Positions 1 through 26,000 of a stretch of DNA of 64,000 nucleotides are shown piece after piece. The DNA is from Quinella sp. 2Q5 (lineage in GTDB: Bacteria; Bacillota; Negativicutes; Selenomonadales; Selenomonadaceae). Position 1 is the first letter of the stretch; each line of letters starts with the position of its first letter. Under the pieces are notes generated by a model that was not told the origin of the DNA, made no database searches, and saw only the letters and a program-made list of their open reading frames with translations. The stretch lies in the NCBI GenBank assembly GCA_015206785.1, contig JADEZQ010000009.1:1-64000 (forward strand). Direction: 5' to 3'. The translations under genes and the position numbers were made by a program.

Positions 1-546
1 GAGGAAAGCCTTCTCGAACTGCTCCTCTGTCATGGCAGGTCCCTTGGCGAGGTTTGCGGTGCCTCTTGCCAGTCTGCGGTTCACGATCTTCTTTGTGAGG
101 AAATTCCTGCAATCAGTGCCGTCGCAGTCGTCACAGCCCTGTTCGACCATGCTGTCCGTGACCAGTTCTTCGGGAAGATCCATCTTGACTCCCATGTCGC
201 ATACCAGAAGGTCTATTCCCCAGTACTTCGCCATGGAGCTTACTCCGGTCAGTCCTCTGGTGAAGTTGATGGTCTGTGAAAAAGTTACGGACTGAGGCGC
301 TGAAGCTACTCCTTCATCCACCACGCCGTTATCGGCACTGAAGATGGCCACCGCCTGTTTCTTCATGTCGTTCTTTACCAGTCCTGTTATACCGGCAAGC
401 CTTACCGTCATCTCCTCCAGGTCTCCGAGAGCTCCGGTGGGTTTGGCCAAAACTTCCTGTCTCGCTTCAGCGGCCTTCACCGCCTCCTGATCAAGATCTC
501 CCATCTCTTCTATGTCGTTTAATATCTCAAGTATTTTGCTGTTCAT
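1..546 (-). CDS. cobT: Nicotinate-nucleotide--dimethylbenzimidazole phosphoribosyltransferase, N-terminal part (runs off window start)
   Basis: Minus-strand translation from 546: MNSKILEILNDIEEMG...LAKPTGALGDLEEMTVRLAGI...AVAIFSADNGVVDEGVASAPQSVTF...VCDMGV...NRRLARGTANLAKGPAMTEEQFEKAF; matches CobT family motifs. Absent from the ORF track because it has no stop inside the window. Confidence 0.85.
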   Translation of the reverse strand, partial: MNSKILEILNDIEEMGDLDQEAVKAAEARQEVLAKPTGALGDLEEMTVRLAGITGLVKNDMKKQAVAIFSADNGVVDEGVASAPQSVTFSQTINFTRGLTGVSSMAKYWGIDLLVCDMGVKMDLPEELVTDSMVEQGCDDCDGTDCRNFLTKKIVNRRLARGTANLAKGPAMTEEQFEKAFL

Positions 547-576: not shown

Positions 577-972
577 CTATATTTCTCCTATGTCTGTATA
601 TCCGTCGAGGAAGGCTGCCATCATCTGAAGGATGGTCTCGCATTTTCCTTTAGTCACCTCAACGTTAAGAGGCATGATGGGATCATGCAGAGACTTTCTC
701 AGAAGGCACCATCCTTTGACCTCCGGAAGGTCGAAGTTTATCCTTACGCCCTCGTAGTTCGGCTCCACCAGACTGAGTCCCCTGTCTTCCTTGGCCTTTA
801 CCCAGACTTTCAGTCCTGCCAGCACCTGATCTCCGTACACGGAGAAATCGCTGGCGTGGATGGGAAGTCTCACCTCTATTGCCTCCTTCGGCTCTTCGAG
901 GCTCGAGATCATGTCCCCTATATCCGCTCCCTTCTTATGGAGCTGAGCTCCTTTGATCACTATCTTGTCCAT
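577..972 (-). CDS. C-terminal domain fragment of a phosphomannomutase/phosphoglucomutase-type alpha-D-phosphohexomutase
   Basis: 131 aa; ...EPKEAIEVRLPI...DFSVYGDQVL...NYEGVRINFDLPEVKGWCLLRKSLHDPIMPLNVEVTKG... resembles the phosphohexomutase domain IV (NxEGVRVxF...GWxLLRxSxHDPxMPLNxES). Catalytic N-terminal domains are missing upstream. Confidence 0.6.
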   Translation of the reverse strand: MDKIVIKGAQLHKKGADIGDMISSLEEPKEAIEVRLPIHASDFSVYGDQVLAGLKVWVKAKEDRGLSLVEPNYEGVRINFDLPEVKGWCLLRKSLHDPIMPLNVEVTKGKCETILQMMAAFLDGYTDIGEI

Positions 973-1162
973 TATCCAACACCTTCTTTAAAGTTTTTAT
1001 TTGTTCTTCTTTTCCCATATCATATGCATTAATATTTTTTAAGTAATATAAAATAAGATATAAATTATATATTTTATGGAATATATCCAAAAAATTATGA
1101 TTAAAATATGTCTTTAGTTTCAATTAAATTGTCATAATAATTCAATAAAAATTTTAAAAAAA

Positions 1163-1235
1163 TGGAACAGGCGGGCATCGATCCCGCTGCCTCTTGCATG
1201 CTAAGCAAGCGCTCTACCATCTGAGCTACTATCCC
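1163..1235 (-). tRNA. tRNA-Ala (AGC), eukaryotic-type
   Basis: GGGATAGTAGCTCAGATGGTAGAGCGCTTGCTTAGCATGCAAGAGGCAGCGGGATCGATGCCCGCCTGTTCCA folds as a full cloverleaf (acceptor GGGATAG/CTGTTCC, anticodon loop TTAGCAT, T-arm GCGGG-ATCGATG-CCCGC). A box TAGCTCAGATGG, B box GGATCGATGCC, no encoded CCA, followed by TTTTTTT. Confidence 0.9.
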
Positions 1236-1348
1236 AGGCTATATTTTTATTAATTTTTGATATTATATATATTAATTCATTAATTTAATAAAAATTTAAT
1301 AAAATTATTAATAAGATTATTTTATTTTTCTTTTTAAATAATATAAAA

Positions 1349-4300
1349 TTAAAAAAATCTGATGCCGAAGAACTGCGCGTTGTTTTTGCCGACGGTGCCG
1401 CGTCCGTCGTCGAGGTCAACCAGAAGCGTGCCGTCGTAGTCGCTGAAGTCGACGCCGGAATTTTCGCCGATGTAAACGTCCTCTTTGCCGTCAGCTTTGA
1501 TGAACTCGCCTTCCTGCGCGATTGCGGCGTTGTAGGTCGTGCCGTCGAAAACTTTGAACTGCGCGAAGTCCGCGCCGTCGGCAACGTCTTCCAGAACCGT
1601 CGTGTCGCCGTCGGCAGTCTGGATCACGATGTCCTTGCCGTCGAAGAAACAGCTGAGCCCCGCAGTGTTGACGGAAACCGCGTCGCTCGTGTAATCGAAT
1701 CCGGTTTTGAAATTCGCAATGGCGTTGTCGCCGTCGTTGATGTCGACAATCGCGCCGTCGTCGCGTATGTAACGTTCGTCGTCCGGCGCAAGTTCGATGA
1801 CGTTGGAGCCTGCGCCCGCGTCGACGTGAGCACCCGCGCCCGCGTAAATCGTGTCGTCGCCCGCGCCGCTTTCAACCGTCGAATAACTTTCTGCGAAGAG
1901 GAGCAGGTCGTCCTTAACGTCCGAGGCGTCAAGCGCGTTACCTTCGGCGGTGTAACCGACCTTCTGCAAATCGCCGTCGCGGTCGTAGAAATTAATCAGG
2001 TCATTGGAGCCCATATCGATTTGCGCACTGCCGAGCGTGATTTTGCCGTCGTCGAGTTTGATTGCGCCGCGCTCGATCGCCGCCTCGATGTCGGCGTAAT
2101 TCGTGCCGAAACCGGATTTGGTCGAATGGTCGTAGCCTTCGAGCGTCATTTTGCCATCGAGCGGGAAGAGCCACGTGTTGCCGTCGCCCATGTTGACGTT
2201 GACGTGCCGGCCTTGGCTGACAATCGTGTCTCCGTCCGCGTCGATGTTGACCCAGGCTGGCGTGTCCTCGACGATTGCAAGGTCGTCGCCGTCAAGTTCA
2301 TGATTGAACCTGCCGCGACTTTCGCTACGGACGACGAACGTTTCGTCCGGCTTGAACCTGTCGATGAGTTCTTCGGTCGACGTCTGCTTGGTGATGAGCG
2401 GATTGCTCTCGTCGTAGATGTATGCGTCTTCGTCGCCGAGCCCGACAATCACGTCGCCCGCCTGAGCTTCCAACGTGACGACTTCCGTCGAATAAGTTCC
2501 AGCCTCGCCGACAGTCAAGCTTGCGCCTTCGTCCAGTCCGACGATTTCTTTGTTGCCGAACCAAACGCCGCCTTCTTTGTCGCCCGAAAGTTCCAGCCTG
2601 TTGCCGTTGAACGTCATGCTCGCGTTGGCCATCTGCACCCAAACCTTTTCGGGCGCGTCGGTGGTGATGGTGGCGTCGTACGCGCTGTAAACGCTGAGCG
2701 TGTCGTCCTTCGCGCTGATGTAGCCGTAGTCCAAGTAGCCTCCGACTTGAATGGCGGTGCCGTTGATCTTCGACACGCCGCCGAGTGACGAAATAAATGC
2801 GCTTTCGTCCACGTTGGACATTTCCAAACCGGTGTCGGTCGTCGCGATGCTGATGTCGTCGTCGCCGTGAACGATAATCTTGTCGCCGCCGTTGATTGTG
2901 ACGGGAGCCACGGTGAAGTCGCCGCGGATTGTGCCGGTCAAATCGTCTGCGCTTCTGATGAAACCTTCGCCGTTTTCAAAGTTCGCCTCAAGCACGACAC
3001 TGGAGTCGCCGGAGATGTTGTAGACGCGTTCGCCGATTGTGAAGTCGCCTTCGGTCTCGGTTTCGATGTTGAAATACTGCTCGGTCGCCTCGCCGTTTTC
3101 GATTGCGCCGCCCGTGATGGTTGAATCCGCACTAATGCCGCGAACCTTCTCCAAGCCTCCGGAGCTCGCCTGCACGCTGTAAGTGCTGTCGCCCGCCACC
3201 GCGAGTTTTTCCGTGAAGACATAGTCTTCGCCGCTGGTGCCCATTAGGAAGCCGTCCTCCGCGCCGGTGACGGTGACGCCGGAGGCAACGTCCTCAATGA
3301 GCTCGAAGGTCTTGCCGTTAACGGTGACTGAGCCTTTCTCATACAGCACGAAAGTTTCATCAGGATCGAAGCCCGTGACGTTGACGCCCGCGCCGATCTT
3401 GACGACGTCTTCGGTCAAGGTAACAGTTCCGTCGCCCGTGAAAGTCATGCCGTTGACGGTGACAGAGTCGTCGCCCGGCGTGAGAGCCAAGCCGTCGTCC
3501 GTGCCGGTCACTTCGACACCGTTCGCGGAAGTCTCAACCGTCTGCCCGTTGAGCGTGTAAGTGCCCGCTTCAGCAAGAACCAGCTCTGCCAGGTCATCTT
3601 TGCTGTTGAAGGTCGCGCCCGCAGACAGAATCGCTTTGCCCTCGTAGTTGTCGGTCAGTGTCGTGTCGTTGCGAATCTCCCAGAACTTACCGTCGGTCCA
3701 ATCGAGAATAGCCGAGCCATCGCCGATGATGTAGGCCGCGCTACTGTCGTCGTATTTAACGATGAGTTCGCTGCCGTCAACGGTCAAGGTCGCGTTGTAG
3801 CCTTCGTAGTCGGTGACGGAAATTTTCGTGCCGTCAGCGGCGGTGATGATCCCGTCCTTGAAGGTGAGCGAGCCATCGATTGCCGTGACGGTGATGATGT
3901 CTTGGTCGCCCGACGAAATGGTGATGTTGAGCGCGTCGGCAGAGGTCGGCGCGATGGTAAAGCTGTCGTCGCCGAACATGATTGCGTTGTCGATGTCGGC
4001 GGTCGCGGTTATCGTGGTGGTGACGCCGTTTTCCAAAGTGCCCATGATGGTCGTGCCCGCCGCCATGTTGAAGTTGTTGGTCTGTGCGTCAATGGTGAGC
4101 GTGCCCGCTGTGACAGCGATGGTTGAATCGTCCGAAGTAAAGCCCGTGACGCTGACGCCCGCGCCGATTGCGTGGTCGCCGTCGGCAGTGAGCGTGACGG
4201 AGCCTTCGCCCGTGAAGCTCAAGCCGTCGCAGGTTACAGCGTCGCTCACGGCAAGAACCATTCCGTTTGAAGTCACGCTAATTTGTACGCCTTCGGTCGT

Positions 4301-7300
4301 CGTGGTGAGTTTATGTCCGTTGATGACGTAATTGCCCGCTTCGCTCGTGGTGAACGTGAAGGGATTTCTCGGAGCAAGATCGGTCGAAACGGTTGTGCCC
4401 TCGGCAATGACGAAATTGAATGAACTTGCCGAGTTCGTTAACGTCACAGAACCGCCGGTGACGCTTACTGTCCTGTTCCAAGCGTTCAGCGAGAAGGACA
4501 TTTTTATAGTGCCCTCGTCCGAGCCGAAAACTATGCCCTCGCCGTTAAAGGTATGGTAAGCATCGCCGTCAATCGCCGAAATTTCCAAATCAAGAGGTCC
4601 GAACGACAAAGTTGTCATTTTCGCGGTCAGCGTGTTGCCTTCTTCAATCAGTACTTTGCCGGAATTGTACCACAGCGTGCCTTGAATGCTTCCATAAGTG
4701 AAAGACGATCCTGCGGACGTCGTCAACTTGACGTCAAGCTTGTCGTCGGTGGAGGTGATGCCCAAACCTTTTTCGGGGTCAAGGGCGATTGTGCCGCTTG
4801 AGCCGCGTGAAGTTATCGCGACTTCGTAGCCGTCTTCCCACTTGAGGTCAATGGTCGTGTCCTCTTCAAGGGAGACGTTGCCGCCGCGCTGATAAACGAT
4901 TGCGCCGTCAATGCCGATTGTCGCGGTGCGAGTGACGCCGTCGCGGGTGACAGACATTTGCAAATCGCCGTCGCCGCTTTCGGGAGCAATCCTCAAGCCG
5001 CCGCCGTCCGCCATAGAAATTGCGATGCTTGCGTCGCCGAGCGCGGTGAGAGAAATTTTTCTTTCGTCGGGTTGCGTCAAGGTTATCGTCGTGCCTTGGG
5101 TCAAGCCGAAGCTGTTTGTGAGGGGGTCGATGCTGATTGAGCCGCCGCTGACTTCCACGGTGCTGCTGAAGACTTCCGTGTCGCCGCGTTTGATGGAGAT
5201 GTCCAAAGAGCCGTCGCCTTCGCCGGGCTTGACGATGATCTTGCCGTTTTCGTCGGCGATAGCAATCGTTGCCTCGTCGTTGGTGGTGATGGAAACTTTT
5301 CGTTCGCCCATAGTCAAATCGACGGTCGTGCCCGCGGTGATGGAAATTTCTTGCTCATCAAGGTCGATGCCGACAGAGCCACCGCTGACTTCCACGGTGC
5401 TGCTGAAGACTTCCGTGTCGCCGCGTTTGATGGAGATGTCCAAAGAGCCGTCGTCTTCGCCCGGCGTCATCATGATCTTGCCATCAACCAGAGCTATGCT
5501 GATGCCGGCGTCGTCGTTGGCAGTGATCGAAATGGTGCGGTTGTTTCTGGTTATGGCGACGGTGGTGCCCGCGGTGATGGAAATTTCTTGCGTGGTGTTG
5601 TCGACGGTGATGGTGCCGCCGCTGACTTCCACTTCGCCGTCGAAAATTGTCGCGTCGCCGCGTTTGACGACGATATCGAGTGCGCCGTCGCCGTCGCCGG
5701 GCGTCAGCATGATTTTGCCGTCAACGACTCTAATGGAAATTTCGGCGTCGTCGGTGGGCGAGACGCTGACGGAATAGTCGTCGAAGCTAACGGTGGTTGA
5801 CGTGCCCTTGAGCAGTGAAAGTGTACCCGTCGACAAGTCGATTGAAGCCGCAGAGCCCGCCGCGAATTCCAGAGCGCCGTTGAAAATCTCCGCGTCGCCG
5901 ATCTCGCTGACGATGTTGAGCGAGCCGGCTTTGTCCGCGCTGAAGACGATTACCGAGCCTTCGGCGGCAACTTTGACGGCGGCGTCGTCGTTGGCGGTGG
6001 TGGTGATGGTCGACATACCCAAAGCCATTTGCAGGGACGTGCCTTCGGTCATGTAGAATCCCTGCGAAGCGAAGTCCAAACCGAGCGTGCCGTCGACAGC
6101 GATTTTGTTCTCAAAGAACGCTTGCCCGTCTTTGCCCAAGGAGATGACCATTGAATCATACTCTTTGTTCGGGAAGGCGAATTCAAGCTTCCCGTCGTAG
6201 AGGTTTGGCGAGAAGAGGAGTGACTTGCCGTCCGTCGTCGCCTTCAAAGTGTAGGCACTGCCGTTGTTGGCGGTGACGGTTAAGCTGACGAAAGAATCTT
6301 TTTCGGCGTAGGGACTTTCCGTGCCGACAAAGCCGAAGGTCTGAGCTTTCGAATTGTAGCTGACGATGCCGCCGAATTCCAAGGCCGCGTCTTTGATGAC
6401 AGTTTGCCCGTTGCGCACAATGGTCATGTTCAAAGCCGTGTCGGTGTCGGGTTTGATGTAGAATTCCCCGTCGGTGTCTCTGAAGTAGCTCAAGGTGACG
6501 TCTTCGGGCGCGGTGAGGGTGACGATTCGTCCGTTGCGCGTGAAAGAAATGCTCGTGCCCGCCGCGATGTCAATGGTTGCGTTCGCCGGGTCGATACTGA
6601 CCGAGCCGCCGCTGATATCGATGTCGTTGCTGAAGAGCGATTCGTCTTTGTTCTTGAACGTGACCTTGAGGGAGCTGCTGTCTTCGCCGGTCGTGAAGGT
6701 GATCTTGTTGTCGGCAAGGGTAATGGCAGCGGCAACGTCTTCGTTGGCGGTGACGGAAATGGAATCTTCTCCCTGCGTGAGGACGATGGTCGTGTCCTTG
6801 GTGAGTGAAACGGATTGCGTGGCGGGGTCGATGCTGACAGAGCCGCCGATGACTTCCACGGTGCTGCTGAAGACCTCCGTGTCGCCGCGTTTGATGGAGA
6901 TATCCAACGCGCCGTCGCCGTCGCCGGGTGTAATTGCGATTTTGCCGTCAACCAGAGCTATGTTGATGCCGGCGTCGTCGGTGGCAGTGATCGAAATGGT
7001 GCGGTCGTCTCTGGTTATGGCGATAGTCGTGTCCTTGAGGAGGGAGACGGATTGATCGGTGGGGTCGACGACGAATGAGCCGTTTATCGAAAGTTCGGCG
7101 TTGAAAACGGTCGTGCCGCCCTGTTTGACGTCGAAATCTACGGCGTAGCTATCAAAGGCTATGGTGACGTTCTGCCCGTCGGTGTTGAGCGTGGCGTTTA
7201 TAGCTTCGGGCGCGGTGAGCGTCATGTCAAGGCCATCGCCTATCATCTCAACTTGCGTGCCTGCAGTCACTGAAAGTTTTCCGCCGATCAAATCAATCGA

Positions 7301-8233
7301 CATCGAGCCTTCGGAAAGATTGAGCGTGCCGTTGAACAGCTCAATGCCCTTAGCTACGAACGAGTTCGTCAAGACCGCTTCACTGTCCGTGCTCGGCTTG
7401 AGTTGGACTCCCGCGGCAACGGTGTCGCCGCTTTCGTCGACGAAGAATTTGATTCCGTCAATGGTGCCGCCCTGTGCGCCGAAACTGATTGCGTAGTCCA
7501 GGATGTCGACTTTTAAGTCGCTGCCGTCGGAAAGCTCAAGAACTTTGCTTTTGGGGTCGTAGCTGATGCTGCCCGTGATTTCAACGGTAAATTCGTCTGA
7601 TGCCAGCTTCGTTGCGACGGCGATGAGTTTTGCCGCTGCCTCCTCGGGGATACCCAGAATGGTGGGCAACATCGATTCCAACGCCGCCAAAGTTTGCGCA
7701 ATTTCCTCCGGAAAAGACACCGTCGCCTTGACGGTCTCGGTCGTCTGGAAATTGGCTTTCGCGCCGTCGAAGGTCAGCCGTGCGCCATCGCGGGGAATGG
7801 TCAGCTTAACGCCAAACGGAATGTTCCCTGCTATCATCCCACTCATACCAAGGGTGCCCGAAGGCATAGTCAATCCGTTGGCGGAGTAAACGACAACGCC
7901 CGTCGTGTAGTTGATCGACGAATCACCGTAGCCGACCTTGATCGCGTCGCCGTCGGAAGTGCAGGTGAAGTTGAACGCCGTGTCGCCGACGAAATTTACC
8001 GCGGGGTCAGTTTTACCGGCAGGGGTCGCAGTGACCGTGCTGCTTGCAATGCCCGTGATTGCCGTTGTCGTGTAGACACCGTCGGTTTCGGTAGTTGTCG
8101 CCTTGAGGACTGCGCCCTCAATGTTCGCCGTGTAGTCGACGCCGTCAAGCGTGAACGTCTCGCTGGGTTTCAACGTGACCTGTCCGTCAGTCGTCTCAGC
8201 AAAACGTTGCAAGTCGAAGGTTAGATTGCCCAT
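1349..8233 (-). CDS. Giant repetitive beta-rich surface/secreted protein with short RTX-like stretch; probably 3'-truncated
   Basis: 2294 aa; N-terminus MGNLTFDLQRFAETT; ~79-aa repeats (TTIAITRNNRTISITANDDAGISIALVDGKI..PG.DDGSLDISIKRGDTEVFSSTVEVSGGS); RTX-like GAGDDTIYAGAGAHVDAGAGSN near the C-terminus; RBS AGGAGGTAAC upstream. Confidence 0.85.
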   Translation of the reverse strand: MGNLTFDLQRFAETTDGQVTLKPSETFTLDGVDYTANIEGAVLKATTTETDGVYTTTAITGIASSTVTATPAGKTDPAVNFVGDTAFNFTCTSDGDAIKVGYGDSSINYTTGVVVYSANGLTMPSGTLGMSGMIAGNIPFGVKLTIPRDGARLTFDGAKANFQTTETVKATVSFPEEIAQTLAALESMLPTILGIPEEAAAKLIAVATKLASDEFTVEITGSISYDPKSKVLELSDGSDLKVDILDYAISFGAQGGTIDGIKFFVDESGDTVAAGVQLKPSTDSEAVLTNSFVAKGIELFNGTLNLSEGSMSIDLIGGKLSVTAGTQVEMIGDGLDMTLTAPEAINATLNTDGQNVTIAFDSYAVDFDVKQGGTTVFNAELSINGSFVVDPTDQSVSLLKDTTIAITRDDRTISITATDDAGINIALVDGKIAITPGDGDGALDISIKRGDTEVFSSTVEVIGGSVSIDPATQSVSLTKDTTIVLTQGEDSISVTANEDVAAAITLADNKITFTTGEDSSSLKVTFKNKDESLFSNDIDISGGSVSIDPANATIDIAAGTSISFTRNGRIVTLTAPEDVTLSYFRDTDGEFYIKPDTDTALNMTIVRNGQTVIKDAALEFGGIVSYNSKAQTFGFVGTESPYAEKDSFVSLTVTANNGSAYTLKATTDGKSLLFSPNLYDGKLEFAFPNKEYDSMVISLGKDGQAFFENKIAVDGTLGLDFASQGFYMTEGTSLQMALGMSTITTTANDDAAVKVAAEGSVIVFSADKAGSLNIVSEIGDAEIFNGALEFAAGSAASIDLSTGTLSLLKGTSTTVSFDDYSVSVSPTDDAEISIRVVDGKIMLTPGDGDGALDIVVKRGDATIFDGEVEVSGGTITVDNTTQEISITAGTTVAITRNNRTISITANDDAGISIALVDGKIMMTPGEDDGSLDISIKRGDTEVFSSTVEVSGGSVGIDLDEQEISITAGTTVDLTMGERKVSITTNDEATIAIADENGKIIVKPGEGDGSLDISIKRGDTEVFSSTVEVSGGSISIDPLTNSFGLTQGTTITLTQPDERKISLTALGDASIAISMADGGGLRIAPESGDGDLQMSVTRDGVTRTATIGIDGAIVYQRGGNVSLEEDTTIDLKWEDGYEVAITSRGSSGTIALDPEKGLGITSTDDKLDVKLTTSAGSSFTYGSIQGTLWYNSGKVLIEEGNTLTAKMTTLSFGPLDLEISAIDGDAYHTFNGEGIVFGSDEGTIKMSFSLNAWNRTVSVTGGSVTLTNSASSFNFVIAEGTTVSTDLAPRNPFTFTTSEAGNYVINGHKLTTTTEGVQISVTSNGMVLAVSDAVTCDGLSFTGEGSVTLTADGDHAIGAGVSVTGFTSDDSTIAVTAGTLTIDAQTNNFNMAAGTTIMGTLENGVTTTITATADIDNAIMFGDDSFTIAPTSADALNITISSGDQDIITVTAIDGSLTFKDGIITAADGTKISVTDYEGYNATLTVDGSELIVKYDDSSAAYIIGDGSAILDWTDGKFWEIRNDTTLTDNYEGKAILSAGATFNSKDDLAELVLAEAGTYTLNGQTVETSANGVEVTGTDDGLALTPGDDSVTVNGMTFTGDGTVTLTEDVVKIGAGVNVTGFDPDETFVLYEKGSVTVNGKTFELIEDVASGVTVTGAEDGFLMGTSGEDYVFTEKLAVAGDSTYSVQASSGGLEKVRGISADSTITGGAIENGEATEQYFNIETETEGDFTIGERVYNISGDSSVVLEANFENGEGFIRSADDLTGTIRGDFTVAPVTINGGDKIIVHGDDDISIATTDTGLEMSNVDESAFISSLGGVSKINGTAIQVGGYLDYGYISAKDDTLSVYSAYDATITTDAPEKVWVQMANASMTFNGNRLELSGDKEGGVWFGNKEIVGLDEGASLTVGEAGTYSTEVVTLEAQAGDVIVGLGDEDAYIYDESNPLITKQTSTEELIDRFKPDETFVVRSESRGRFNHELDGDDLAIVEDTPAWVNIDADGDTIVSQGRHVNVNMGDGNTWLFPLDGKMTLEGYDHSTKSGFGTNYADIEAAIERGAIKLDDGKITLGSAQIDMGSNDLINFYDRDGDLQKVGYTAEGNALDASDVKDDLLLFAESYSTVESGAGDDTIYAGAGAHVDAGAGSNVIELAPDDERYIRDDGAIVDINDGDNAIANFKTGFDYTSDAVSVNTAGLSCFFDGKDIVIQTADGDTTVLEDVADGADFAQFKVFDGTTYNAAIAQEGEFIKADGKEDVYIGENSGVDFSDYDGTLLVDLDDGRGTVGKNNAQFFGIRFF
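4850..7100 (-). repeat. Coding tandem repeats, ~237 bp (79 aa) period
   Basis: Near-identical segments acttccacggtgctgctgaagacttccgtgtcgccgcgtttgatggagatgtccaa at 5151 and 5388, related at 5625 (237-bp spacing), another close copy at 6852. Confidence 0.8.
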
Positions 8234-18937: not shown

Positions 18938-20083
18938 TTGAACACAATGACAACGCTTGAACCGTTCCCCGAAAGAATTTACGTAACGCGCCCGGTCTTC
19001 CCGACAATCGACGAAGTCACCGAGAAACTGCAAGACATCTGGCAATCGAAATGGCTGACGAACAACGGTCCGCAACACACCATGTTGGAACGGGAGCTGA
19101 CGGAATTCTTGCGCGTGCCGTGCCTGTCGCTGTTCAACAACGGAACGATTGCGCTGATGGTCGCCTGCCAAAGTCTGCGGCTTAGCGGAGAGGTCATCAC
19201 AACGCCGTTCACCTTCGCCGCCACGCCGCACGTTTTGAGCTGGAATAACATCACGCCGATTTTCTGCGACATCGACGCCGACACCATGAACATCGACGCC
19301 GACAAAATCGAATCAATGATAACGCCGCATACAACCGCAATCCTCGCTGTTCATGTCTTCGGCACGCCCTGCAACGTCGACAAGATTCAGGACGTCGCTG
19401 ACCGCTACGGGCTCAAGGTCGTCTATGACGCGGCGCATGCGTTCGGCGTGGAGATTGACGGGCGCGGCATCGGCACCTTCGGCGATATCTCCATGTTCAG
19501 CTTCCACGCCACGAAACTTTATCACACGCTCGAAGGCGGCGCGCTTGCAATGAACGACGTCAACGTCAAGCAACGGATTGACCTGCTGAAAAACTTCGGC
19601 ATCAAGAACGAGGAGGAAGTCGTCATGCCCGGCATCAACGGCAAGCTCGACGAAATTCGCGCTGCCATCGGGCGAATCATGCTCGGCTACGTGGAAGGCG
19701 AGAGGCTCAAGCGTCGACGGTTGCACGCGGTCTATGACGAAGAACTTGCCGGCGTCGACGGGCTGACGTTAATGCCGAAGACTGCCGCGGACGTGAAGCT
19801 GAATTGGCAGTATTACGTCGTGCGCGTGGACGAAAAAATTTTCGGCAGGTCGCGCGATTATGTCTACGACGAGCTGAGGAATTACAATGTCTTCGCGCGG
19901 AAATATTTCCATCCGTTGTGCAGCGAGTTCACCTGCTATCGTCAACTGAATTCGTCCGCCGTCGCCAATCTTCCGACAGCCAACGCCGTCGCCGGGCAGG
20001 TCTTGAGCTTGCCGATGTACGGTGCGCTTGCCGAAGACGACGTGCGAAAGATTTGCGCGCTCATCAAAAGTTTTCGTCGCTAA
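18938..20083 (+). CDS. DegT/DnrJ/EryC1/StrS-family PLP aminotransferase
   Basis: WLTNNGPQHTMLERELTEFL...SLFNNGTIALMVA...VITTPFTFAATPHVL...VVYDAAHAFGVEIDGRGIGTFGDISMFSFHATKLYHTLEGGAL. Confidence 0.93.
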   Translation: MNTMTTLEPFPERIYVTRPVFPTIDEVTEKLQDIWQSKWLTNNGPQHTMLERELTEFLRVPCLSLFNNGTIALMVACQSLRLSGEVITTPFTFAATPHVLSWNNITPIFCDIDADTMNIDADKIESMITPHTTAILAVHVFGTPCNVDKIQDVADRYGLKVVYDAAHAFGVEIDGRGIGTFGDISMFSFHATKLYHTLEGGALAMNDVNVKQRIDLLKNFGIKNEEEVVMPGINGKLDEIRAAIGRIMLGYVEGERLKRRRLHAVYDEELAGVDGLTLMPKTAADVKLNWQYYVVRVDEKIFGRSRDYVYDELRNYNVFARKYFHPLCSEFTCYRQLNSSAVANLPTANAVAGQVLSLPMYGALAEDDVRKICALIKSFRR

Positions 20084-20092
20084 GGAGGAGCA

Positions 20093-20398
20093 ATGACTCA
20101 CGACATCAACGTTTACATCTTGATTGCCAGCGCGGTGACGTTGGCGATAAAAATTCTGCCGCTGACTCTGATTCGCCGCGAGATCAAGAATGTGACGGTG
20201 CGTTCGTTCCTGCACTACGTCCCTTACGTCACGCTGGCGGTGATGACTTTCCCCGCGATAGTTCACGCCACGCAGTCGCCGATATCGGGCGCGGCGGCTC
20301 TGGTGGCGGGCATCGTCGCGGCATGGTTCGGCGCAAGCCTGTTCAAGGTCGCGGTGCTGTGTTGCTCGGTCGTCTTCGTCACGGAAATGTTCATTTGA
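20093..20398 (+). CDS. azlD: AzlD-family branched-chain amino acid transport protein
   Basis: ~101 aa, four predicted TM segments; IKILPLTLIRREIKN...FLHYVPYVTLAVMTFPAI pattern typical of AzlD. Confidence 0.75.
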   Translation: MTHDINVYILIASAVTLAIKILPLTLIRREIKNVTVRSFLHYVPYVTLAVMTFPAIVHATQSPISGAAALVAGIVAAWFGASLFKVAVLCCSVVFVTEMFI

Positions 20399-20427
20399 GC
20401 GCAAAAAAAATAACCGCCTTGCAAGCG

Positions 20428-21441
20428 TCAATCGATAATCGCGCCGCCGATAACTTCGTCGCCGTCGTAGAAGACAATCGACTGCCCCGGCGTGACTGCG
20501 CGTTGAGGGTCGGTGAAGGTGACGCGCAAATTTTTTTCAACGGTGCATTCGGCGGGCTTTGAGCCGTAACGAATCTTCGCGTGCAAAATTTTCGGCAAGG
20601 TCGGCTCATAAATCCAATGGACGTCGCCGGCAGTCAAGGTCGTGGTGAAAAGTTCATCGCCCTCGCCGACGACGACTTGACGGTTGGCAACGTCGAGGCG
20701 GGTGACGTAGAGCGGGTGAGAGTGGGCAATGCCGAGCCCGCGGCGTTGACCGATGGTGTAGCCGCAGACGCCGCAGTGTTGTCCGAGAATTTTTCCGTCA
20801 GCGTCGACGATTGAACCCGCCCTAAGAGCTTCGGCGTCGGGTGCACGGTCAGCAATGAAGCGGCGGTAATCGTCGTCGGGCACAAAGCAAATCTCTTGGC
20901 TGTCGGACTTGTGAGCGGTCGGCAAATTTTTTTCGGCTGCCAATCGTCTGACGTCGTCCTTGGAAAAATTTCCGAGCGGCAAAAGAATTCGCGCGAGCTT
21001 GTCGGGCGTGAGGTTGTAGAGCACGTACGATTGATCCTTGCCAACATCTTTGGCACGCTTGAGCCGGAACCTTGAGCCCTCATTGACGACGCGAGCATAA
21101 TGACCGGTCGCCAGGAAGTGAGCACCGAGGCTCGTTGCGAAGTCGAACAGTGCGCCGAATTTTATTTCGCGGTTGCAACGGACGCAGGGATTGGGCGTGC
21201 GCCCGCGCAGATACTCCGCGACGAAATAGTCAACGACCTCACGGCGGAAGGCGGAGCGCATGTCCACGACGTGATGACGAATGCCGAGGGTTTCGCATAC
21301 ATTTCGGGCGTCGTCAAAATTTTGCGCGTCGTCGAGCTGCATGGTCACGCCCTCGACGTCGAAGCCTCCTTCCAACAAAAGAGCCGCGGTCAACGAGCTG
21401 TCAACGCCTCCGCTCATTGCCGCGGCAACTTTAAACTTCAT
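20428..21441 (-). CDS. mnmA: tRNA-specific 2-thiouridylase
   Basis: MKFKVAAAMSGGVDSSLTAALLLEGGFDVEGVTMQL...TPNPCVRCNREIKFGALFDFA...CGVCGYTIGQRRGLGIA. ORF-track start at 21582 extends into a repeat; 21441 ATG preferred. Confidence 0.95.
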   Translation of the reverse strand: MKFKVAAAMSGGVDSSLTAALLLEGGFDVEGVTMQLDDAQNFDDARNVCETLGIRHHVVDMRSAFRREVVDYFVAEYLRGRTPNPCVRCNREIKFGALFDFATSLGAHFLATGHYARVVNEGSRFRLKRAKDVGKDQSYVLYNLTPDKLARILLPLGNFSKDDVRRLAAEKNLPTAHKSDSQEICFVPDDDYRRFIADRAPDAEALRAGSIVDADGKILGQHCGVCGYTIGQRRGLGIAHSHPLYVTRLDVANRQVVVGEGDELFTTTLTAGDVHWIYEPTLPKILHAKIRYGSKPAECTVEKNLRVTFTDPQRAVTPGQSIVFYDGDEVIGGAIID

Positions 21442-21470
21442 GTTGATGCCTCCAATACGATGACGCTTGA

Positions 21471-21690
21471 GGCCGACGTGATGTCGGCCCGCCGCCGTAT
21501 GACGACCAAGGATGGCGTCATAGGCGGCACGAGCGGTTTCGGGTAGCGCGGACGTTTCGTTGGTAGACGGTATCCGCCCCACGCGCAGTGGCGAGTTTCT
21601 TTGCTACTTTCTTTCCTCGGTGAAAGAAAGTAGAACACGAAACATCAAAGTAGATCACAAAACATCAAAGTAGATCCTGAACGTCAAAGC
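21471..21690. repeat. Multi-hairpin intergenic repeat, subfamily 2 (copy D) with terminal ~20-bp micro-repeats
   Basis: ggccgacgtgatgtcggcccgccgccgtatgacgaccaaggatggcgtcataggcggc...ctactttctttcctcggtgaaagaaagtag then (acgaaacatcaaagtagatc)(acaaaacatcaaagtagatc); near-identical to 48301-48490. Confidence 0.9.
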
Positions 21691-21706
21691 GAATGATAAA
21701 CCCGAT

Positions 21707-22987
21707 TTACGCACGAGCAGGAGCAGGCGCGGCGGGCTTAGGCGTCTCATAAATATCAGTGTGCAGATATTCGCTCTTGATGACGTCGTCGCCATTATAC
21801 CAGAGCCGATAAAGCGAATTGCCGTCGAGCACGACAGAGATATCCGCGCCGCCCAGGTCTGCCTTCGTGCCGAGGACGTAGACGCTGATAGTTGAGCCGT
21901 AAGCCTCGGCGATGAGATAAACATTATGCGGCAGGTCGTTGCGGAATTTGAAATCAATCTGCCCGTCGGCAACGGTGGCGTCGCGCCCATAACCGATATA
22001 CGACGATTGGAAATAATGCGGCGTGCGTTCGGTCGGCGTCAAGCCCGCGAGCAACACTGCGTTATACAGCGTGGAGCTGACCTGACAGACCCCGCCGCCA
22101 TAGTCAATGTCCGCCTTTCCGTTGATGATGACGCCCGCCATCTTGTAGCCCTTGTCCCAGGTGCGTTCGCCAACTGTGTCGTTGAAAGAGAATGTCCACG
22201 AGGGACGGACGATTTTGTTGCTGATGGAATTGGCCGCGAGCCAGATATTGTCGCCGCGGTCGCCGGGATAATAATAAGTGCTGTAAGTTCCGAGGATCGA
22301 ATCGATTGCCGCGATGTCTTCGGTGGTGATGAACGGGGCAACGTCTTCGGGCTCAAGGTCGATGACGCCGCGGGGCAGGTCCAGCGTCGTCAAGGGTTCG
22401 TTCAAACTTGCGGCGAGCTTTTCGACGTTGAGCTTCTTGCCGATGACGCCGGGAAATTTTTCGACGACGTTGCCGTCAGCAATCTTGCACAGCGCGTTGA
22501 CGGGGTCGCGGTTGACTTTGGCGGCGATGGCGTTGAGTTTCTCGTTGAGCAACGCGGCATCATATTGCGCGGTGATGTGGACGTTGCGGCCGTTGAGGAA
22601 GCAGCGCACCTGTTCGTTGAAGTTGCCGACAGCCGAGCCGCCGCGCCCGTAGCCGAACGCCTCCTGAGCCGCCTTGTCGATTTGCGGGGTCAGAGCAATC
22701 TCTTCGGGCGTGACTTCAAACTCCTGCCCCTCGTAGCGGAAAGTGAGCGGGTGAATTTTTTGCGCGGCGATGTTGGTGAAAATTTTTTCCGCGCCGAACC
22801 TGTCGAGCCCGCCGATTGGTTGACCCTCAACACGCACGCCCGGGACGATTGTGTTTCCGTCCGCCACAGAATCCGAAATTGCCAACGTCCCCACGCCGAC
22901 GAAAGCCACCGTCGCCGCAGCGACAGCCGCGCCCTTCGTCGAGAGAAAATTTTTTAGGTTGAACTTTTGAACTTCCGAAGTCTCCAC
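21707..22987 (-). CDS. VanW-family protein (membrane-anchored)
   Basis: N-terminal TM; YYPGDRGDNIWLAANSISNKIVRPSWTFSFNDTVGERTWDKGYKMAGVIINGKADIDYGGGVCQVSSTLYNAVLLAGL: VanW signature. Confidence 0.88.
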   Translation of the reverse strand: METSEVQKFNLKNFLSTKGAAVAAATVAFVGVGTLAISDSVADGNTIVPGVRVEGQPIGGLDRFGAEKIFTNIAAQKIHPLTFRYEGQEFEVTPEEIALTPQIDKAAQEAFGYGRGGSAVGNFNEQVRCFLNGRNVHITAQYDAALLNEKLNAIAAKVNRDPVNALCKIADGNVVEKFPGVIGKKLNVEKLAASLNEPLTTLDLPRGVIDLEPEDVAPFITTEDIAAIDSILGTYSTYYYPGDRGDNIWLAANSISNKIVRPSWTFSFNDTVGERTWDKGYKMAGVIINGKADIDYGGGVCQVSSTLYNAVLLAGLTPTERTPHYFQSSYIGYGRDATVADGQIDFKFRNDLPHNVYLIAEAYGSTISVYVLGTKADLGGADISVVLDGNSLYRLWYNGDDVIKSEYLHTDIYETPKPAAPAPARA

Positions 22988-23042
22988 AAAAATTTCGCCT
23001 CCCTAATTTATCCACGCCATTATAACCGAGAAAATTTTTTTA

Positions 23043-26000
23043 TCAAACACTTTGCGCCAAAATGTCGGCGAGCTTGGCTTCGAACGCGCGGCAATACTTC
23101 ATCGGGTCGAGCGCGGCGGACTGCAAGAACATAGCGCGAAGATTTTTGTGCAGGGCGTCTAGGGTTTCGGTGTCGTTGGCTAAGGCGACGGCGGTTTGAA
23201 TGTAGGCTTCGACGCTGTTGACGGAAAGTTCGCCGAGCCCGATGCTGTTGAGGATGCTTTTGCCGAAGCGAGTGGAATGACGTTCGCCGAAGAAATTTAT
23301 GACGGGCACGCCCATATACAGCGCGTCGAGGGTCGTTGCGCCGCCGACGTAAGGGTAAGCGTCCAGAATGATGTCCACCGCGCTGATGGCACCGAAATAA
23401 TCATGCACGGCGGGGCGAATGGTCACGCGTTCCATGTCGCAGCCGATGGACTTCATCTTGTCGAAGAGGACGTCGACTGTGCGGTTGCTGATGAATTCTT
23501 GCGCACGCATCAAAAGTTTGGCATTCGGCACGCGGCGCAAGATTTCAGCCCAGATGGCTAGCATGTCGTCGTTGATTTTCATGTAGCGGCAGATGGTGCC
23601 GAAGGTGACGTAGCCGTTGCTCAGGCAGGGTGCACCCGTCGCGGCGGGCAAATCTTCGCGGCGGGCGTAGCTGAACTGCGCGGGCATGTACAAAAGTTTC
23701 TCGGCGAAAAATTTTTCGTGCTCACCAGGCGGATCGAGAACGTCGTCGGTGATGAAATAGTCGACGTCGCTGAGCCCAGTCGTCGACATGTAACCGATGC
23801 CGCTGATTTGCACGGGCGCGGGTCGATGAGCCAGAGCCCCCAAGCCGTTGTAGCCGGTGTGCCCCGCCAAATCAATGGCGACGTCAATTTCATCAGCGAA
23901 AATTTTTTCGGCAAGCTCCTCGTCCGTCAAGCTCTGCACGTCAACGAAATGTTCAACGCCGCGCCGATAAAATTCCGTGAACTCGTCATCTTCGGGGTTG
24001 CGGCTGTAGCAGGTGACTTCGAACTTTGCGCGGTCGTGGCAGCTGACGAAGCCGAAGACTACGGCGAACGCCGCGTGCTTGCGAAAATCCCCGCTGATGT
24101 AGCCGATGCGAATGCGTTCGTGGTGATGACGGCGGGGCGTGAACTTTTCCACGTCGCCAAAAATTTTCCCGTAATCGAAATGCGGCGCAGTCAGCTCCTC
24201 GCTCGAAAGATCCAGGAAGTGCAAACTCAACAGCACAGAATCGAAGAGTTCACGCCGCCGCGAAGGCTTCTGCGCCAGCTCAAACGCCCGCTCGTAATTC
24301 TGCACCGCCTCCACGTGATGACCGTTGTTCTGCGCGTACTTGGCAAGCTTGGCGTGGAACTCGGCGAGGATGTCCGCGGAAAAATTTTCAACCTCGCCCG
24401 AAGCGTACAGATGATCAATCGCCGCGCGAATGTTTTCGTAGGCACCGATGTTGTCGTCGAGATTGAAGCGGCGGTCGGCTATGGTGACGAGAAGTTTGGT
24501 GTCGCGCACGGCGTCGACGCTCGCGGCAAGCTCGGCGAAGTAGAGCGTGCGCTTGAAGTCGACGCGATTGAAGCGACTTTTGCCGGGCTTGACTTCCAGC
24601 GACAGATACAACGACGCCCGCCGATAAAATTCTCGCGCCTCGGCAATCGTCAACGGCGGCGGCTCCTGCGGGAAGATGGGCAACGGTTTCTTATCGACGT
24701 ACGCGCGGAAAATTTTTTCGTACGCCTGCTCAATCTCGCCCATGTAAATCGCGTCGTTCATCACGGGCGACTCTTCCATCCGCCGCCGCAAAGTCAAATG
24801 CAACTCGCGAAGGCGTTGGCGGTCGTTGGCAAGGGCGACGGCTTTGGCAACGTATTCGTCCGCACTGAAGGCGCAAAAATCTTCCAGCCCCATGTTCATC
24901 AGCAACGAATAGCCGAAGCGCGAATTGTGCCGTTCGCCGACGAGAGTGATGACGGGCGCACCCATGTACAGCGCGTCGCAGGTGGTGCCGCCGCCGGGAT
25001 AGGGGAAGGTGTCCAGCGCGATGTCGACGCGTTCATAGCAACGGACGTAGTCAATCTCATCAGGCTCGCAGGTCACGCGGTCGAGATCAATTCCCGCCGC
25101 ACGCATTCGTTCACGAGCACGATTCCCGCCGAAATTTTCACGGAAGACGGCGGCTTTGAGATACAGGCGGCTGTTGGGAACGGCGTCCAAGATTTTCGCC
25201 CACAACGTCAACATCTTGTCGGTAACCTTGCAGAAATTGTTGAAGCTGCCGAACGTGACGAAACCGTTGGCGACGCACGGCGCGGGCGTCACGTGATGAG
25301 AGGCGTCGTGCCAGACGTAGCAGAAGTGGCTGTGTTGCAGGCGCAGAATTTTTTCGGTGAAGAACTTTTCGTTGAGCCCTTCGGGGTCGGTGAACTTGTC
25401 GGCGATGAAGTAATCGACGGTATCAAGTCCGGTTGTCGACATGTAGCCGATGCCGCTGATTTGAATGGGCGCGGGCTTATACGCCAGCACGTCCAATGAA
25501 TTGTTGCCCGTGTGCCCCGCCAGGTCGACGAGGATATCAATTTCGTCGGCGAGGATTTGGTCGGCAACGGTGCGTGCGGTTTTGTCGAGGATATCGCGGA
25601 AGCCGTCAACATTGGCGGCGAACTGTCGGGTGATGTGGTCGGCGGCGTTGTTGGCATAGATGAAGACTTCGAAGCGCGTCTTGTCGTAGCTGGTAAAGAA
25701 GTGTGCGCTGAAGAAGGCGACGACGTGGAAGCGGACGTCGGGGGAGATGTAGCCGATGCGGATTTTTTTGTGGCGGGCGTGACGGGCGCGGTTGTGTTTG
25801 AAGCGGGGAATGTGCGCCAGAAGTTTTCCGAAGCCACGTGCCGCGTCGAACAGCTCTTCGCGGGTGACGGGCAGGTTGTGCAGGTTGAACAGGAAGTTGC
25901 CGTATTCTTCGCGGCGAATGTTCTCTGCCTGAGCATATTGAGCCGTGCCGACAAGCGAGCTGATATCTTGCAGGGCGTTGGCTCTGTAATACTCGATTGC

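What the first reader, a model, noticed from the sequence alone, without database searches (positions are those of the whole stretch)
1155..1240. Eukaryotic-type tRNA-Ala(AGC) with A box, B box and Pol III-like T-run on a bacterial contig
The minus-strand cloverleaf has anticodon AGC, A54 in the T loop (ATCGATG), A box TAGCTCAGATGG, B box GGATCGATGCC, no encoded CCA, and TTTTTTT directly after the discriminator base. This resembles plant/protist cytosolic tRNA-Ala(AGC), not bacterial tRNA-Ala(TGC/GGC). It indicates that the flanking AT-rich DNA comes from a eukaryote (ciliate, anaerobic fungus or plant feed are candidates; inference) or, much less likely, was captured by a bacterium.
Basis: partly seen in the sequence, partly recalled or inferred. 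Interest (0 to 1): 0.72.

Follow-up and report, generated by a model that had tools for sequence, protein, structure and literature searches.

The report
Protist tRNA on chimeric contig end
An ordinary eukaryotic alanine tRNA gene, probably from a gut ciliate or similar protist, has been artificially joined between DNA of two unrelated gut bacteria at the end of a contig, so it is an assembly artefact and says nothing new about bacteria.

Summary
Window 1163-1235 (minus) is a well-formed tRNA-Ala(AGC) with the full eukaryote-only signature of that tRNA: A34, G15/A48, A54/A58, A16, U17, G60, no encoded CCA. Of 398 Bacillota genomes searched for the signature, only this one matches; the two nearest hits differ at exactly base 34, 48 and 54. 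The tRNA sits in a ~390-base AT-rich segment (about 967-1360), and a gene is broken at each edge. On the right, a 2,294-aa Negativicutes protein stops where homologues in 14 same-genus genomes run on for 287-347 residues. On the left, a clostridial phosphohexomutase-like gene begins in mid-gene, at the same base against three independent ruminant-gut MAGs. So the contig joins a clostridial, a eukaryotic and a Negativicutes piece within 1.4 kb of its end. Another contig of the same MAG (C25) ends in ~3.4 kb of AT-rich DNA encoding a eukaryotic PP2A-type phosphatase, joined inside a truncated dctM gene; a third (C7) starts with 1.2 kb of foreign AT-rich DNA. Verdict: a genuine eukaryotic tRNA gene, but not a feature of the bacterium; it is a read or assembly chimera. 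A ciliate-like protist is the likeliest source (inference); fungi are disfavoured because the A48/A54 signature was not observed in them.

The parts
1163..1235 (-). tRNA-Ala(AGC) gene, eukaryotic type (A48, A54, A34, no encoded CCA)
   Evidence: ARAGORN, Rfam RF00005 58 bits, position check, eukaryote-only signature
1156..1162 (-). T7 run directly after the discriminator base, possible Pol III terminator
   Evidence: sequence; weak, since T-runs are common in these flanks
968..1360 (.). AT-rich eukaryotic segment containing the tRNA (flanks 16% and 6.5% GC); edges accurate to a few bases
   Evidence: composition; left edge from homology start in three MAGs, right edge from the truncated ORF
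968..1017 (-). possible start of the next eukaryotic gene (MGKEEQIKTLKKVLDNG...), cut by the left junction; may be chance
   Evidence: open frame; no homology test possible at this length
577..967 (-). C-terminal part of a clostridial phosphohexomutase-like gene; its apparent ATG at 972 is not the gene's start
   Evidence: full-length homologue in L004; homology begins at window 967 in G456, G457 and G458
1..546 (-). N-terminal part of a clostridial cobT-like gene, cut by the contig end
   Evidence: Pfam DBI_PRT; 80-88% identity to ruminant-gut Bacillota MAGs
1361..8233 (-). Negativicutes large protein gene, truncated at its C-terminal end by the right junction (ORF runs to 1349 by chance)
   Evidence: homologues in 14 same-genus genomes continue 287-347 aa beyond the break

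Best explanation
The segment at about 968-1360 is nuclear DNA of a gut eukaryote, most likely a rumen or gut ciliate or a similar AT-rich protist. It holds an ordinary tRNA-Ala(AGC) gene whose internal A and B boxes would drive Pol III transcription, and whose A34 would become inosine, in its own cell. It was joined artificially (library preparation, a chimeric read, or the assembler) between a clostridial fragment (1-967) and the Negativicutes contig (from 1361), in the last 1.4 kb of contig C22. In the bacterium it does nothing, because it is not part of that genome. Shown here: tRNA identity, eukaryote-only signature, the two gene breaks, the three-way composition, the contig-end position, and eukaryotic genes at another contig end of the same MAG. 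Inferred: ciliate origin, Pol III use, and which step made the chimera.
For: Signature A34 + R15/A48 + A54/A58 + R16, U17, R60, reported as eukaryote-only (PMC7566577); only this genome of 398 Bacillota matches it. Both flanking genes broken at the segment's edges: right, homologues in 14 genomes run on 287-347 aa; left, homology starts at base 967 in three MAGs whose gene is intact. The flanks belong to different bacterial groups. Position 1.2 kb from a contig end. C25 ends in eukaryotic DNA (PP2A-type phosphatase E = 4.9e-108, TORTIFOLIA1 domain) joined inside a truncated dctM; C7 starts with 1.2 kb at 18-26% GC. No like locus in 36 same-genus genomes.
Against: No reads were available, so the chimera is shown by anatomy, not by coverage. 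The eukaryote itself was not identified: no eukaryotic collection was on hand, and viral-contig searches found nothing. No telomere repeat (CCCCAA/TTGGGG) occurs in the C25 tail.
Confidence: 0.95

Rival explanations
1. Real horizontal transfer: the Negativicutes bacterium captured eukaryotic DNA with the tRNA gene, together with a clostridial fragment, by rearrangement into its large-protein gene.
For: The three pieces lie on one contig in a MAG listed as 0% contaminated.
Against: Needs two unrelated donors at one spot, both neighbouring genes destroyed, and chance placement at a contig end. C25 and C7 of the same MAG show the same kind of foreign end. No relative has it.
Confidence: 0.015
2. 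A bacterial or phage tRNA-Ala(AGC) that evolved A34, A48 and A54 on its own within an AT-rich bacterial segment.
For: Bacterial tRNA-Ala genes are up to 80% identical to it, and A34 tRNAs for other amino acids exist in some Bacillota, e.g. tRNA-Leu(IAG) in Lactobacillales (PMC13249217, abstract).
Against: None of 397 other Bacillota genomes has the combination; it is reported as absent from bacteria and archaea. No exact match to the tRNA core in 2.9 million viral contigs. It lacks the encoded CCA that 76 of 83 tRNA predictions in the fetched loci carry (five of the other seven are copies of this very tRNA).
Confidence: 0.02
3. Chimera as in the best explanation, but the eukaryotic piece comes from another source: plant feed, the animal host, an anaerobic fungus, or a non-ciliate protist.
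For: Human and Drosophila tRNA-Ala(AGC) share A34, A48 and A54 with it, so the tRNA does not single out ciliates. Plant tRNA-Ala(AGC) has A54 too, as far as I recall (own knowledge, not tested).
Against: Flanks of 6.5-16% GC fit AT-rich protists or anaerobic fungi better than animals or most plants (own knowledge), and fungi lack the signature. The C25 tail (23% GC, standard code) resembles the trichostome ciliate Muniziella cunhai, 25.7% GC with standard code (PMC11316547), although it need not come from the same eukaryote.
Confidence: 0.25

Closest known systems
Eukaryotic cytosolic tRNA-Ala(AGC) with R15/A48 and A54/A58 pairs (Westhof et al. 2020, PMC7566577)
   Same: Anticodon AGC, G3:U70, G15/A48, A54/A58, purines at 16 and 60, U17, no encoded CCA; 83.6% and 82.2% identity to a human and a Drosophila gene
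   Different: Acceptor stem differs (GGGATAG/CTGTTCC); G30=C40 instead of the G30oU40 of some insects; very AT-rich flanks
Bacterial tRNA-Ala(GGC/CGC) of Bacillota, including this MAG's own tRNA-Ala(GGC)
   Same: Cloverleaf, G3:U70 and much of the D and anticodon arms; 75-80% identity
   Different: Bacterial genes have G34 or C34, C48, T54 and an encoded CCA
Chimeric contigs in MAGs (the problem addressed by GUNC, PMC8201837, abstract)
   Same: Pieces of different lineages joined within a contig of a bin that passes marker-gene checks
   Different: Here the foreign parts are short ends, partly eukaryotic, with few genes or none complete; whether GUNC would flag them was not tested

Membership tests
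Eukaryotic cytosolic tRNA-Ala(AGC) | tRNA cloverleaf with anticodon AGC (A34) | tested here: met
Eukaryotic cytosolic tRNA-Ala(AGC) | G3:U70 alanine identity pair | tested here: met
Eukaryotic cytosolic tRNA-Ala(AGC) | R15/A48 and A54/A58 together, with purine 16, U17 and purine 60 | tested here: met
   positions; definition (PMC7566577); none of 397 other Bacillota genomes matches
Eukaryotic cytosolic tRNA-Ala(AGC) | No encoded CCA; internal A and B boxes; T-run terminator | tested here: met
   sequence; B box has A54 in place of T54; T-run weak given the AT-rich flanks
Eukaryotic cytosolic tRNA-Ala(AGC) | Higher score with a eukaryotic than a bacterial tRNA model (tRNAscan-SE) | not testable with these tools
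   tRNAscan-SE models not available
Bacterial tRNA-Ala | G34/T34/C34, C48, T54 | tested here: not met
   A34, A48, A54; bacterial comparison
Fungal tRNA-Ala (anaerobic fungus as source) | No A48/A54 pairs; C30=G40 | tested here: not met
   window has A48, A54 and G30=C40; fungal state from PMC7566577, where Neocallimastigomycota are not named in the text read
Chimeric contig | Neighbouring genes interrupted at the junctions and flanks from different organisms | tested here: met
Chimeric contig | Loss of spanning reads or a coverage step at the junctions | not testable with these tools
   no reads held

The most novel reading that the evidence does not exclude
The locus is real: a Negativicutes cell carries a eukaryotic tRNA-Ala(AGC) gene taken from a gut protist, with a clostridial fragment beside it, and so could have an A34 (inosine) alanine decoder unknown in bacteria.
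Probability: 0.015. Interest if true: 0.8.

Novelty: not a real feature. Interest (0 to 1): 0.1.

Why it matters
For the biology of the bacterium it does not matter. For quality control it does: a MAG listed with 0% contamination has contig ends made of eukaryotic and foreign bacterial DNA, so genes near its contig ends, and any horizontal transfer claimed from them, should be distrusted. The combination A34 + A48 + A54 in a tRNA-Ala is a cheap and specific flag for eukaryotic DNA in bacterial assemblies.

Tried and rejected
(1) That contig C20's end holds the missing C-terminus of the 2,294-aa protein: its terminal fragment appears to include a stretch equivalent to one the window already has, and shares no overlap with it; rejected. 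(2) Overlaps between the window's first 3 kb and 80 contig-terminal stretches: only short AT-rich or repeat matches. (3) Finding the eukaryote in viral contigs by tRNA pattern or by the C25 phosphatase: nothing. (4) C8 and C16 ends and C3 start are also low in GC; C8 and C16 carry bacterial-looking ORFs and no clear join, so they are not counted as chimeras; C3 was fetched but not examined further. (5) Literature search for printed tRNA sequences: long strings gave nothing, shorter ones gave a human and a Drosophila tRNA-Ala(AGC). (6) RF00005 and tRNA searches of the clostridial MAGs gave only partial matches (bases 132-171 of the query) to the window tRNA, i.e. ordinary tRNAs.

Full report
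What was claimed and what is there. ARAGORN reports exactly one tRNA in the window, tRNA-Ala(AGC) at 1162-1236 minus, and Rfam RF00005 matches 1163-1235 minus over its full length with 58 bits, E = 6.4e-10. All stem pairs form, with G3:U70 and U5:G68 as the only wobbles. No CCA is encoded, and seven T follow the discriminator base. The T-run is weak evidence, because the flanks are 16% and 6.5% GC and T-runs are common there.

Is it eukaryotic? Overall identity does not decide it. Bacterial tRNA-Ala genes from related genomes are 75-80% identical to it, against 83.6% for human tRNA-Ala-AGC-10-1 (sequence printed in PMC10620816) and 82.2% for a Drosophila tRNA-Ala(AGC) copy (printed in PMC9020824; comparison). 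The diagnostic positions do decide it. Westhof et al. 2020 (PMC7566577) report that tRNA-Ala(AGC) of many eukaryotes has the paired changes R15/A48 and A54/A58, with an added U17 and purines at 16 and 60. [quoted passage not shown] The window tRNA has A34, G15, A16, U17, A48, A54, A58 and G60. A pattern fixing the anticodon, A48 and A54 within the surrounding arms, with up to three mismatches allowed, was run on 398 Bacillota genomes. The only exact match is this MAG. The two hits with three mismatches are tRNA-Ala(CGC) genes that differ at base 34, position 48 and position 54, precisely the diagnostic ones.

Where it sits. The window is bases 1-64,000 of contig C22 (69,546 bases) of a MAG of 1.82 Mb in 42 contigs, listed as 79% complete and 0% contaminated. 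The tRNA is thus about 1.2 kb from a contig end. The sequence there falls into three parts: 1-~967 (52% GC), ~968-1360 (AT-rich around the tRNA) and 1361 onward (57% GC).

The left part is clostridial. It encodes the start of a cobT-like gene (Pfam DBI_PRT) that is 88%, 81% and 80% identical in protein to uncultured Bacillota RUG12614, RGIG1576 (goat abomasum) and RUG12385. Before it lies a 131-aa ORF, which is only the C-terminal part of a phosphohexomutase-like gene; the full gene stands directly before cobT in RUG12614. Aligned to three of these MAGs, homology begins in every case at window base 967 (query base 394). The ATG at 972 is therefore not the gene's real start.

The right part is the MAG's own genome. 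Its first gene (1349-8233 minus) reads as a 2,294-aa protein ending in ...NAQFFGIRFF. In 14 genomes of the same genus the homologous protein continues for 287-347 residues beyond this point; the few other, weaker matches are partial alignments that end earlier in the query. The gene is cut at about 1361.

So both neighbours are broken exactly at the edges of the AT-rich segment, and they come from different bacteria. One transfer event cannot easily produce this; a chimera can.

Is this a habit of the assembly? I scanned 80 terminal stretches of this MAG's contigs. Contig C25 ends with about 3.4 kb at 23% GC. That tail encodes a 304-aa PP2A-type serine/threonine phosphatase (best PDB match PP2A catalytic subunit, E = 4.9e-108) and an Asn-rich protein with a TORTIFOLIA1 C-terminal domain, both eukaryotic in kind. 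The join falls inside a dctM gene of which only profile positions 313-413 of 413 remain. Contig C7 starts with about 1.2 kb at 18-26% GC and jumps to 60% near base 1190. Foreign contig ends are therefore recurrent here. Which step produced them (ligation, chimeric reads or the assembler) cannot be told without reads.

Which eukaryote? Not settled. The low GC of the flanks, and the compact, AT-rich, standard-code genes of C25's tail, resemble gut trichostome ciliates: Muniziella cunhai is 25.7% GC, uses the standard code and stops mostly with TAA (PMC11316547). That C25's tail and this segment come from the same eukaryote is an assumption. Relatives of the clostridial piece come from ruminants, where ciliates are abundant (PMC10284877, abstract). 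Fungi are disfavoured by the tRNA signature. No eukaryotic collection was on hand, and viral-contig searches were empty.

Verdict. The tRNA is a genuine, ordinary eukaryotic gene. Its presence on a bacterial contig is an artefact. Novelty is marked 'not a real feature' because what made the finding notable, the bacterial linkage, is not real.

Noticed in passing
L156:8080-11512 (contig C25 of the same MAG, about 20079-23511): About 3.4 kb of 23% GC eukaryotic DNA (PP2A-type phosphatase, TORTIFOLIA1-domain protein, Asn-rich ORFs) joined inside a truncated dctM gene at a contig end.
   Followed up: yes
L159:1-1190 (contig C7 start of the same MAG): 1.2 kb of 18-26% GC DNA with three short ORFs; two tested have no Pfam match. 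It joins abruptly to 60% GC Negativicutes DNA at a polysaccharide-deacetylase-like gene; looks like a third foreign contig end, source unknown.
   Followed up: partly
L113 and L157 (contig C8 end), L121 and L158 (contig C16 end), L070 and L160 (contig C3 start): Further contig ends with GC of 33-47%, well below the MAG's ~57%; could be mobile elements or more foreign DNA.
   Followed up: partly
window 1349-8233 minus: Very large repetitive protein beginning MGNLTFDLQRFAE, with no Pfam match in the truncated 2,294 aa; the genus has many paralogues with a conserved C-terminal region.
   Followed up: partly
L004:1626-3170; L005 and L006 around 3150-4000: In ruminant-gut Clostridiales a phosphohexomutase-like gene lies directly before a divergent cobT with a Cys-rich insert; in two relatives another gene lies between them.
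   Followed up: no
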